A stretch of DNA of 37,343 nt. It comes from Nitrospiraceae bacterium. GTDB lineage: Bacteria > Nitrospirota > Nitrospiria > Nitrospirales > Nitrospiraceae. The notes under the pieces are model-generated. The model was given only the letters and a program-made list of their open reading frames with translations. It did not search any database and was not told the DNA's origin. Positions 20,601 through 24,263 of this stretch are shown in pieces. The translations under genes were made by a program, and so were the position numbers. The stretch is from the NCBI GenBank assembly GCA_900299325.1, contig OMJK01000178.1:1-37343 (forward strand), written 5' to 3'. Numbering within the stretch: position 1 is the stretch's first letter; the number at the start of each line of letters is the position of its first letter.

Positions 20601-20822
20601 ATGCCGGACGCTATCCGGATTCACGTGAACGGCGAATCGCGCGGCTGGCGGGCCGGCGGCACGGTGGCCGAATTGCTCAGCGAGCTGGACATCAAAGCCG
20701 AGCGCGTGGCCGTCGAACTGAACCGGGAAATTCTCGACCGCGCGGCCTTTGCGCAGCGGAGCGTGCGGGACGGCGACCAGATCGAAATTTTAAGTTTTAT
20801 CGGCGGCGGGTCCGGCCGGTAG
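20601..20822 (+). CDS. thiS: ThiS sulfur-carrier protein (beta-grasp), C-terminus GGGSGR
   Basis: MPDAIRIHVNGESRGWRAGGTVAELLSELDIKAERVAVELNREILDRAAFAQRSVRDGDQIEILSFIGGGSGR; next to thiG. Confidence 0.93.
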   Translation: MPDAIRIHVNGESRGWRAGGTVAELLSELDIKAERVAVELNREILDRAAFAQRSVRDGDQIEILSFIGGGSGR

Positions 20823-20846
20823 GGGAGCGGGGAATAGGGGATAACG

Positions 20847-21617
20847 ATGAGCGATACCTTGGTGATAGCGGGCCGGGAATTCCGTTCGCGGCTCTGGGTC
20901 GGGACAGGGAAATATAAGGACTTCGTCGAAACGAAGAGAGCCATCGAGACGTCCGGCGCCGACGTGGTCACTGTCGCAGTGCGGCGCGTCAACATTACCG
21001 ACCGGTCGAAAGACAATCTGCTGGACTACATCGATCCCAAGAAATACACCATCCTGCCCAACACGGCCGGCTGCTACACCGTGGAGGACGCCGTTCGCTA
21101 TGCGCGGCTGGCCCGCGCCGCCGGCGTGTCGGATCTGGTGAAGCTGGAAGTGATCGGCGATGAAAAAACGTTGTTCCCCGACACGGCCGGGCTGATCGAG
21201 GCGGCGAAGATTCTTGTGAAAGAAGGGTTTGTCGTGCTGCCCTATACGAACGACGATCCGATCGTGGCGAAAAGGCTGGTCGACGTCGGCTGTCCCGCCG
21301 TCATGCCGCTGGCGGCGCCGATCGGGTCGGGCCTCGGCATTCGCAACCCGTACAACCTGAAAATCATCATGGAAACCGTCAAGGTCCCGATCGTCGTGGA
21401 TGCGGGCGTCGGCACGGCGTCGGATGCGGCGCTGGCGATGGAGTATGGGGCCGATGCGGTGCTGATGAACACGGCGATCGCGGGCGCGCAGGATCCCATC
21501 GCCATGGCCGAAGCGATGAAGTACGCGGTGCATGCCGGCCGCCTGGCCTACAAGGCCGGCCGCATCCCCCGGAAGCTTTACGCGACAGCCAGCAGTCCCA
21601 TCGAGGGCATGTTGTAG
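20847..21617 (+). CDS. thiG: Thiazole synthase
   Basis: [79 protein letters not shown]. Confidence 0.98.
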
Positions 21618-21636
21618 GTTAAGTGATCAGTGAAGA

Positions 21637-21715
21637 GTGATGAGTGATCAGCGCAGGAAGATTTGAAGACGCTCTTCGACGAGTATTAGCCGTCCCATCA
21701 CACGTCACTCATCAC
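21637..21715. repeat. Imperfect inverted repeat of GTGATGAGTGA motifs (dispersed short repeat family)
   Basis: GTGATGAGTGA at 21637-21647 and its reverse complement TCACTCATCAC at 21705-21715, each flanked by more degenerate GTGA repeats. Confidence 0.6.
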
Positions 21716-21728
21716 GCATCACTTCCTC

Positions 21729-22355
21729 ATGCCTGCCGTTGATTTCCGTCTCCTCCTCGTCACCGACCGCGGTCAAACAGGCGGGCGATCGCTTCCCGCT
21801 CTTCTCCGGTCATCGATTGCCGCAGGTCTTCCCGCCGTGCAGTTGCGGGAGCGCGATCTCCCGACGCGCGAATTGTTGACGCTGGCGCAGGACGTGCGCG
21901 CCGTCACCGAGGTGTCCGCCGTTCCGTTGATGATCAACGACCGGATCGATCTCGTGCTGGCGTTGAATCTGGCCGGCGTGCACCTGCGGGCGAACAGTCT
22001 GCCGGTATCGGTGACGCGACGAGCGCTCGGTCCCGGTCGCATCATCGGCGTGTCGGCGCATGCCGTCGACGAAGCCGCGCGTGCCGGCGACGAGGGCGCC
22101 GACTATGTTGTGTTCGGCCCGATCTTCGACACGCCGTCGAAGCGCGCCTTCGGTTCGCCGCTCGGTCTTGAGCGGTTGGCCGACGCCTGCCGGCGCACGC
22201 GGGTGCCGGTGTTGGCCATCGGCGGTATTACGAGCGGGCGCGTGCGCGAGATTCGTGACGCCGGTGCGCACGGTGTCGCCGTCGTCGGCGCAATTCTGAC
22301 GCGCGACGATGTCGGGACAGCCACGCGTGAACTGTGCGACGCGGTGCGCGCCTGA
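21729..22355 (+). CDS. thiE: Thiamine-phosphate synthase
   Basis: LLLVTDR, LPAVQLRERDLPTREL, MINDRIDLVLALNLAGVHLR, DYVVFGPIFDTPSK, VLAIGGIT. Confidence 0.95.
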   Translation: MPAVDFRLLLVTDRGQTGGRSLPALLRSSIAAGLPAVQLRERDLPTRELLTLAQDVRAVTEVSAVPLMINDRIDLVLALNLAGVHLRANSLPVSVTRRALGPGRIIGVSAHAVDEAARAGDEGADYVVFGPIFDTPSKRAFGSPLGLERLADACRRTRVPVLAIGGITSGRVREIRDAGAHGVAVVGAILTRDDVGTATRELCDAVRA

Positions 22356-22404
22356 AAAATATTTTTTCGCGGCGTCGGACACGATGCACAATCCTGCAGT
22401 CCTG

Positions 22405-22435
22405 TTGACCGCCCCCCTGGGTCGGGTGTTAGAAT
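22405..22435 (+). promoter_or_regulatory. Candidate promoter for the proteasome operon
   Basis: TTGACC (22405-22410)-N19-TAGAAT (22430-22435) upstream of ARC; spacing is long. Confidence 0.35.
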
Positions 22436-22586
22436 CCGAGACAGGCTGAATAGGCGCGTCTTCATGAGTTTCCTGCGCTGTCCAGCGTACGAAAATGGGA
22501 AACAGGAAGAGCAGTGCCAGCCGACTCCGGTCCCTCCGGGATTCCGTGACGCAGTTCACGAAACGTTGTCCGAGGGTGAGACGGAC

Positions 22587-24263
22587 GTGATTCATAAGCA
22601 CGACGAACAGCCCCGCGAAGTCGACAAACTTCGCGTTCAGATTCAGTCGATGGAAGAGGAACTCCGTCGGCTCTATCAATCCCGCTATCAGCTCGATCAA
22701 GCCACCAAGCAGAACGAACGGCTCGCCGCGACGCTCCAGGAAGCCAAGGCGCAGATCGAAGCGCTGCGCGCCGAAGTCGAAAAGCTGACGGCGCCGCCGT
22801 CGACCTACGCCATTTTCTCCAGTTTGAACGAAGACGGTACCGGCAACGTCTATGTGTCGGGGCGGAAGATGAAGGTGAGCCTCCATCCCTCCATTAAGAG
22901 CAAAGCCTTGCGCCGCGGGCAGGAAGTCATCCTCAACGAAGCCCTTAACGTCATCGAGGCGAAAGGCTTCGAGCTGCAGGGCGAGGTGGTGCGGTTGAAG
23001 GACGTGCTGGAAGGTAACCGGGTGCTGGTGACGCTGCATTTCGACGAAGAAAAAGTCGCCGAACTCGGCGATCCCCTGTTGGCCGAGCGGCTGAGCGTGG
23101 GCGATCATCTGCTCTTCGACACGCGGTCGGGGTACGTCATCGAGAAATTGCCCAAGTCGGAAGCGGAAGAATTGGTCCTCGAAGAGGTACCGGACGTCGA
23201 CTACGACCACATCGGCGGGCTGCAGCGGGAGCTCGAACAGGTCCGCGACGCGGTCGAGCTGCCGTTCCTGCATCCCCATCTGTTCGCGGAGTTCAAGCTG
23301 AGCGCGCCGAAAGGCGTGCTGCTCTACGGGCCCCCGGGCTGCGGCAAGACGCTCATCGCCAAAGCGGTGGCCAATTCGATCGCCAAGAAGCTGGGGCATT
23401 TGACGGGCAAACAGGTGCGGAGCTACTTTCTGCACGTCAAAGGTCCCGAGTTGCTCAATAAATATGTGGGCGAGTCCGAGCGCCAGGTCCGCGAAGTGTT
23501 CAAGAAGGCCAAGGAGCGGGCCGAGGACGGCAACCCCGTCATCGTCTTCTTCGACGAGATGGACGCGCTCTTCCGCACGCGGGGCACCGGCATTTCGTCG
23601 GACATCGAATCGACCATCGTGCCGCAGTTCCTGTCGGAGATCGACGGCGTCGAGCGGCTGCGCAACGTCATCGTGATCGGCGCCAGCAACCGTCAGGATC
23701 TCATCGATCCGGCCGTGCTGCGGGCGGGGCGGCTTGATGTGAAAGTGAAAGTCGGGCGGCCGGACGCCGTCGCGGCGCGCGACATCTTCTCGAAGTACGT
23801 GTCCACCGAGCTGCCGTTTGCGCCGGAGGAATTAGAACGGCATGGCGGCGACCGGAAGGCGCTGGTGGAACGGCTGACGACGCTGACCGTCGACACCATG
23901 TATGCGGCGACGGAAGAGAACAAGTTCATCGAAGTGACGTATGCGAACGGTGAAAAGGAAGTGCTCTACTTCAAGGATTTCGCCAGCGGGGCGCTGATCG
24001 AAGGAATTGTGTCCCGCGCAAAGAAGTATGCCGTCAAGCGGGCGATCGCCCAGGAGGGTGTCGGCCTGCGGTCCGAGGATCTCGTGCGCGCCATCCGGGA
24101 AGAATTCAAAGAACACGAAGACCTGCCCAACACCACGAACCCGGACGATTGGGCCAAAGTCGCCGGCAAGAAGGGCGAAAAGATCGTGCACATCCGGACG
24201 ATCAGCGGCGGGCCCTCAGAATCGCGCCAGATCGAAACGGTCACCACCGGCCACTATCTCTAG
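22587..24263 (+). CDS. arc: Proteasome-activating AAA+ ATPase (ARC/Mpa); likely GTG start 22587, alternative ATG 22464
   Basis: N-terminal coiled coil, OB domains, GPPGCGKTLIAKAVANSIA, VIVFFDEMDALFRTRG, C-terminal ...TTGHYL resembling an HbYX proteasome-docking tail. Confidence 0.95.
   Translation: MIHKHDEQPREVDKLRVQIQSMEEELRRLYQSRYQLDQATKQNERLAATLQEAKAQIEALRAEVEKLTAPPSTYAIFSSLNEDGTGNVYVSGRKMKVSLHPSIKSKALRRGQEVILNEALNVIEAKGFELQGEVVRLKDVLEGNRVLVTLHFDEEKVAELGDPLLAERLSVGDHLLFDTRSGYVIEKLPKSEAEELVLEEVPDVDYDHIGGLQRELEQVRDAVELPFLHPHLFAEFKLSAPKGVLLYGPPGCGKTLIAKAVANSIAKKLGHLTGKQVRSYFLHVKGPELLNKYVGESERQVREVFKKAKERAEDGNPVIVFFDEMDALFRTRGTGISSDIESTIVPQFLSEIDGVERLRNVIVIGASNRQDLIDPAVLRAGRLDVKVKVGRPDAVAARDIFSKYVSTELPFAPEELERHGGDRKALVERLTTLTVDTMYAATEENKFIEVTYANGEKEVLYFKDFASGALIEGIVSRAKKYAVKRAIAQEGVGLRSEDLVRAIREEFKEHEDLPNTTNPDDWAKVAGKKGEKIVHIRTISGGPSESRQIETVTTGHYL

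What the first reader, a model, noticed from the sequence alone, without database searches (positions are those of the whole stretch)
20601..20822. ThiS ubiquitin-fold protein with a masked Gly-Gly C-terminus (...FIGGGSGR)
ThiS is normally adenylated by ThiF on a terminal Gly-Gly. This ORF continues three residues beyond GGG (SGR, then TAG at 20820). Extended beta-grasp sulfur carriers such as QbsE are known to need a JAMM protease (QbsD) to expose Gly-Gly. It therefore predicts a processing protease elsewhere, or use of a non-canonical C-terminus. It lies about 1.8 kb upstream of the Pup-less proteasome locus. Any functional link to that locus is speculation, and a GR ending is not a PafA-type Glu/Gln terminus.
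Basis: partly seen in the sequence, partly recalled or inferred. Interest (0 to 1): 0.6.

Follow-up and report, generated by a model that had tools for sequence, protein, structure and literature searches.

The report
Capped ThiS awaiting trans JAMM processing
In Nitrospira and related bacteria, the protein that carries sulfur for vitamin B1 synthesis is made with a useless, ever-changing tail over its working end, which a protease encoded far away in a cysteine-synthesis gene cluster most likely has to cut off.

Summary
Confirmed: window 20601-20822 (+) encodes a 73-aa ThiS (TIGR01683, 74 bits) ending FIGGG-SGR-stop, first gene of thiS-thiG-thiE. It is not a one-off. In the order Nitrospirales 62 of 64 thi-operon ThiS carry 1-38 residues after an invariant Gly-Gly; in the genus 70 of 70, with 42 different tails. 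Stops directly after GGG are no commoner than chance (2 seen, 2.7 expected), so selection no longer holds the stop there although Gly-Gly itself never changes. ThiS2 is also capped (GGGR) and MoaD is fused to MoaE. In one closed relative the only two ThiF proteins lie in that cluster. Most likely this JAMM uncaps the carriers, thiamin ThiS included. Cleavage is inferred, not shown; outside the order tail and JAMM do not correlate significantly. 'Pup-less' is wrong: Pup (...VQKGGE) is on another contig. Capped carriers plus JAMM are known (QbsE/QbsD, PtmS2/PtmS1); a capped thiamin ThiS across a whole order appears unreported in the papers searched.

The parts
20601..20822 (+). thiS, sulfur carrier protein with capped C-terminus (73 aa)
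   Evidence: TIGR01683 74.1 bits, PF02597 51.8 bits; AlphaFold model, mean pLDDT 90
20802..20810 (+). codons for Gly68-Gly69-Gly70, the normal ThiS C-terminus
   Evidence: Gly69-Gly70 invariant and Gly68 nearly so in 40 aligned Nitrospirota ThiS
20811..20819 (+). codons for the cap Ser-Gly-Arg, predicted to be removed
   Evidence: tail sequence and length differ between species; last residues pLDDT about 52
20847..21617 (+). thiG, thiazole synthase, predicted user of the sulfur on ThiS
   Evidence: PF05690 382.6 bits
21729..22355 (+). thiE, thiamine phosphate synthase
   Evidence: TIGR00693 164.5 bits
22464..24263 (+). mpa/arc proteasomal ATPase, start of the neighbouring proteasome locus; not part of the mechanism proposed
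   Evidence: TIGR03689 736 bits; lies <3 kb downstream of thiG in 61/61 testable Nitrospirales loci

Best explanation
The thi-operon ThiS of Nitrospirales is made as a pro-protein. A JAMM metalloprotease, encoded elsewhere in a cysteine-type sulfur-transfer cluster (ThiS2-CysK-ThiF-ThrC-CysO-ThiF-JAMM), cuts after Gly-Gly(-Gly) and removes whatever follows (SGR here). A ThiF/MoeB-type E1 from the same cluster then adenylates the exposed glycine; it is converted to a thiocarboxylate that ThiG uses to build the thiazole of thiamin. Because the protease accepts any tail, the stop codon is no longer held at GGG and drifts into the thiG leader, where it can overlap the thiG ribosome-binding site and start. 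Shown here: the ORF, the tail in nearly every species, invariant Gly-Gly with variable tail, presence and conservation of JAMM and E1s, caps on other carriers. Inferred from known chemistry: cleavage, the identity of the protease, sharing of the E1, thiocarboxylation.
For: Tails: 62/64 Nitrospirales and 70/70 genus ThiS end beyond FIGGG, 42 distinct tails in the genus. Gly-Gly is invariant in 40 species, so the carrier end is still in use. GGG-stop is no commoner than chance (2 observed, 2.7 expected). Of tails of 5 aa or more, 27/35 contain SD-like cores, and 20/64 stops overlap a possible thiG start, which explains local conservation such as RGQHG. Own genome: one JAMM with full motif (E of ECCG, HSHP..PARPSVTD), two ThiF/MoeB, a second capped ThiS (GGGR) and CysO in one cluster on contig C231. 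JAMM, normally single copy, in 74/79 genus genomes and 48/49 good ones. G140, G029 and G031 break off inside the cluster. Closed chromosome G032: tail TVS, two ThiF only, both in the cluster, one JAMM. ThiS2 has exactly one extra residue (R/L/Q/A/M/V) in all 13 clusters read; MoaD is fused to MoaE or tailed. A family without JAMM (f10, 3 genomes) has GGG-stop. Precedents: capped carriers need a JAMM protease (PMC6006322); DRJAMM cuts MoaD-MoaE (PMC8832034); the E1 MoeZR serves both MoaD and CysO (PMC3227635).
Against: No cleavage data exist. The JAMM is not linked to the thi operon and may serve mainly as a Mec-type CysO-Cys hydrolase. Outside Nitrospirales, tail and JAMM are not significantly associated (p=0.66), and JAMM+ genomes often have untailed ThiS (8 of 17 loci). 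Two or three fragmented genomes (G175, G231, possibly G227) are tailed with no good JAMM found; assembly gaps are likely but not proven. Tails average 8.9 aa against about 23 expected for fully random stops, so length is not entirely free. Species counts are not phylogenetically independent.
Confidence: 0.75

Rival explanations
1. The tail is removed, but by a general carboxypeptidase or housekeeping protease that stops at the glycines or the folded domain; the JAMM acts only on CysO-Cys and ThiS2.
For: The tail is predicted flexible; a few tailed genomes show no good JAMM; JAMM is not linked to thi genes.
Against: Tails up to 38 aa with no shared chemistry suit a Gly-Gly-directed endopeptidase better; known capped carriers use JAMM enzymes (PMC6006322, PMC8832034).
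Confidence: 0.13
2. Thi-operon ThiS is not the working sulfur donor; ThiS2 or CysO supplies ThiG, and the operon ThiS is decaying at its C-terminus.
For: Other, partly uncapped carriers exist (CysO ending AGG); redundancy of carriers is reported in an archaeon (PMC11323500, abstract only).
Against: Gly-Gly and the ThiS body are strongly conserved and thiS stays beside thiG in all 80 loci; decay would hit the glycines too.
Confidence: 0.06
3. The neighbouring bacterial proteasome (Mpa + 20S) trims the tail, which would explain the conserved thiSGE-mpa neighbourhood.
For: thiG is followed by mpa within 3 kb in 61/61 testable Nitrospirales loci, and tails are near-universal in the same group.
Confidence: 0.03
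4. The tail stays on and ThiS works through a non-canonical end or side chain.
For: No protein data exclude it.
Against: Tail residues are unconserved, so they cannot be catalytic; ThiF adenylates the terminal glycine carboxylate in established chemistry; Gly-Gly remains invariant.
Confidence: 0.03

Closest known systems
QbsE/QbsD and PtmS2-PtmS3/PtmS1 capped sulfur carriers with a JAMM protease
   Same: beta-grasp carrier whose Gly-Gly is covered by extra residues; JAMM in the same genome; PtmS2 cap MV, PtmS3 cap C (PMC6006322)
   Different: those serve siderophore or antibiotic pathways with short caps; here it is the thiamin-operon ThiS, the tail varies from 1 to 38 aa between species, and the JAMM is unlinked
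Deinococcus DRJAMM acting on MoaD-MoaE
   Same: JAMM frees a carrier glycine from a long C-terminal extension (PMC8832034); this genome also has a MoaD-MoaE fusion
   Different: substrate is ThiS with a nonfunctional tail, not a fused enzyme
Mycobacterial CysO-CysM-MoeZR-Mec+ cysteine system
   Same: CysO-like carrier, cysteine synthase, MoeB-type E1 and JAMM; one E1 serves two pathways (PMC3227635)
   Different: the Nitrospirales cluster has two E1s without a rhodanese domain, a ThrC-like enzyme and an additional capped ThiS2
Canonical ThiS (E. coli 1f0z/1zud, B. subtilis 1tyg, T. thermophilus 2cu3)
   Same: family and place beside ThiG
   Different: canonical proteins end at Gly-Gly and need no processing
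Geobacter metallireducens ThiS 2k5p/3cwi
   Same: has Lys after GGG in the aligned construct, as ThiS2 here has Arg
   Different: resembles the CysK-linked ThiS2 more than the thi-operon ThiS

Membership tests
ThiS (TIGR01683) | score over curated cutoff across the full domain | tested here: met
   74.1 bits against 37.45, profile 1-64 of 64
ThiS (TIGR01683) | gene next to thiG in a thiamin operon | tested here: met
   thiG 24 nt downstream, thiE next; same in all 80 relatives
ThiS (TIGR01683) | Gly-Gly at the very C-terminus as encoded | tested here: not met
   GGG followed by SGR before the stop; so it is filed as a capped ThiS, not a canonical one
Capped sulfur carriers (QbsE-like) | extra residues after Gly-Gly | tested here: met
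   SGR; 70/70 in genus
Capped sulfur carriers (QbsE-like) | JAMM protease in the genome | tested here: met
   Prok-JAB 69.5 bits with complete motif; 48/49 good genus genomes
Capped sulfur carriers (QbsE-like) | JAMM gene in the same operon | tested here: not met
   JAMM on contig C231, ThiS on C178; in closed N. moscoviensis about 1.1 Mb apart
Capped sulfur carriers (QbsE-like) | proteolytic exposure of Gly-Gly | not testable with these tools
   needs biochemistry
ThiF/MoeB activation | E1-like adenylyltransferase available | tested here: met
   two PF00899 proteins over 270 bits; both only in the Cys cluster in closed G032
PafA-type Pup substrate | C-terminal Glu or Gln | tested here: not met
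   ends SGR; the real Pup ends VQKGGE on contig C101

The most novel reading that the evidence does not exclude
A single, tail-indifferent JAMM is the obligatory maturase of all or nearly all sulfur carriers (thiamin ThiS, ThiS2, capped CysO, MoaD-MoaE) in a whole bacterial order, so one protease gates thiamin, molybdenum cofactor and cysteine sulfur supply and could serve as a shared control point.
Probability: 0.4. Interest if true: 0.65.

Novelty: new variant of a known kind. Interest (0 to 1): 0.45.

Why it matters
ThiS is the textbook carrier that needs no processing, and Iyer et al. 2006 (PMC1779556) noted a complete absence of JAB proteins from thiamine operons. Here the thiamin carrier of an ecologically important order cannot be charged as encoded, which would tie vitamin B1 synthesis to a protease in a cysteine cluster. 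Dozens of natural tails also give a ready-made panel for measuring how tolerant a JAMM protease is beyond Gly-Gly. For annotation, the JAMM in such genomes should be considered a candidate part of thiamin and Moco maturation.

Tried and rejected
The first PF14464 search suggested JAMM-less tailed genomes; a profile of 13 Nitrospirota JAMMs (A1) found the JAMM in most further genomes, and contig breaks explained G029, G031 and G140. The phylum-wide test of tail against JAMM was not significant and is not used as support. Tail as a conserved functional peptide: rejected because close relatives differ; conserved stretches coincide with the thiG ribosome-binding site. 'Pup-less locus' rejected after finding Pup elsewhere. 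Some literature searches gave little because 'ThiS' is read as the word 'this'.

Full report
Observation. The ORF at 20601-20822 (+) is real and ends FIGGGSGR-stop. It is a full-length ThiS by NCBIfam and Pfam, is followed 24 nt later by thiG and then by thiE, and the profile ends at the third glycine, so SGR is extra. Canonical ThiS of solved structure (E. coli, B. subtilis, Thermus) stop at the aligned Gly-Gly.

How general is it. ThiG was used to fetch 80 named Nitrospirota loci; a ThiS lies beside thiG in all. In Nitrospirales 62 of 64 ThiS (window included) have a tail after FIGGG, 1-38 residues long; in the other Nitrospirota loci 9 of 17 do. In the window's own genus 70 of 70 have a tail, with 42 different sequences. 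Gly69-Gly70 are invariant in 40 aligned species while the tails align with nothing. Close relatives differ in tail: bodies 96% identical can have no tail or a 19-residue tail (L046/L051). GGG-stop is found in 2 of 64, against 2.7 expected if the stop fell at random. Tails are nevertheless shorter than random (mean 8.9 against about 23), perhaps because the thiG start limits them; 20 of 64 stops overlap a possible thiG start and 27 of 35 tails of 5 aa or more contain Shine-Dalgarno-like cores. That would explain the few conserved tails (e.g. RGQHG). The AlphaFold model of the window ThiS is confident (mean pLDDT 90) up to the last strand and falls to about 52 at the C-terminal residues. I read this as: the carrier end is under strong selection, the cap is not, so the cap must be removed.

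The protease and the E1. The window's assembly (77% complete) has six ThiS-family proteins, two strong ThiF/MoeB proteins and one good JAMM. Contig C231 carries, on one strand, ThiS2 (ending FYMGGGR), cysteine synthase, ThiF/MoeB, a ThrC-like enzyme, a CysO-like carrier (ending IAGG), a second ThiF/MoeB and the JAMM. The JAMM has the glutamate of ECCG and HSHPHDPARPSVTD and its profile is closest in sequence to solved Prok-JAB 2kks. The cluster is conserved across Nitrospirales. The JAMM, normally one copy, is found in 74 of 79 genus genomes and 48 of 49 of good quality. The single good-quality exception, G140, breaks off inside the cluster, as do G029 and G031. In closed chromosome G032 (OY282373.1) ThiS has the tail TVS, there is one JAMM and only two ThiF, both in the cluster; so if ThiS is charged by a ThiF there, it is one from the cluster.

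Other carriers. ThiS2 has exactly one residue after GGG (R, L, Q, A, M or V) in all 13 clusters read; in the window genome this goes with an ATGA overlap with the cysteine synthase gene. CysO ends at GG or with a few extra residues. MoaD is fused to MoaE in the window genome and in N. moscoviensis, and elsewhere ends in tails such as SGHR or SRGQGG. So caps are common on the carriers of these genomes.

Limits. Across other families of the phylum, tail and JAMM are not significantly associated (9 of 20 JAMM+ and 2 of 7 JAMM- genomes tailed, p = 0.66; G227, G218 and G245 left out as ambiguous). The direction fits: family f10 (three genomes without JAMM) has GGG-stop. JAMM+ genomes often have untailed ThiS, as expected if JAMM permits tails without requiring them. 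G175 and G231 are tailed with no JAMM found; G175 also shows no ThiS2, so the whole cluster is probably missing from the assembly; G231 stays open. No enzyme activity was or could be tested.

Comparison with the known. Capped carriers that need a JAMM protease are known: QbsE/QbsD, and PtmS2 (cap MV) and PtmS3 (cap C) with PtmS1 (PMC6006322). DRJAMM cuts MoaD-MoaE (PMC8832034). MoeZR shows one E1 serving two carriers, and Mec+ is the protease that releases cysteine from CysO (PMC3227635). Iyer et al. 2006 (PMC1779556) proposed JAB release of fused ThiS/MoaD, described ThiS-E1-JAB-cysteine synthase operons, and stressed that thiamine operons hold no JAB gene. What appears new, in the papers I could search, is that the thiamin-operon ThiS of an entire order is capped, with a free-running tail, and would depend on a JAMM in trans. 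I file it as a variant of capped sulfur carriers.

The proteasome. Pup is not absent: G000 C101:5431-5619 encodes MEKQERKQE...FVKNYVQKGGE, and all seven genomes tested have it. The neighbourhood thiS-thiG-thiE-mpa is conserved in 61 of 61 testable Nitrospirales loci, which may be plain conserved gene order; no mechanism links it to the cap.

Noticed in passing
G000 C101:5431-5619 (-), locus L258: Pup/UBact gene ending VQKGGE, unlinked to the proteasome locus of the window; present in all 7 Nitrospirales genomes tested, about 46 kb from thiS in N. moscoviensis.
   Followed up: partly
window 20601-24263: thiS-thiG-thiE immediately upstream of mpa is conserved in 61 of 61 testable Nitrospirales loci and in only 1 of 14 testable other Nitrospirota loci.
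   Followed up: partly
L013 6095-6796 (G000 C77): MoaD-MoaE fusion (junction PPFAGGSPMEQ); in sister species MoaD and MoaE are separate with a tailed MoaD (SGHR, SRGQGG), so fused and split forms alternate inside one order.
   Followed up: partly
L012 975-6363 (G000 C231): Cys cluster with two MoeB/ThiF paralogues of about 270 aa lacking a rhodanese domain and a ThrC-like PLP enzyme between ThiF and CysO; role of the ThrC-like enzyme unclear.
   Followed up: partly
L014 2363-2623 (G000 C58): Further SAMP1/MoaD-like carrier ending ALSGG beside a BNR-repeat-like protein and a methyltransferase; pathway unknown.
   Followed up: no
window 22464-24263: Mpa ends TTGHYL, not the GQYL I recall as typical of mycobacterial Mpa.
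   Followed up: no
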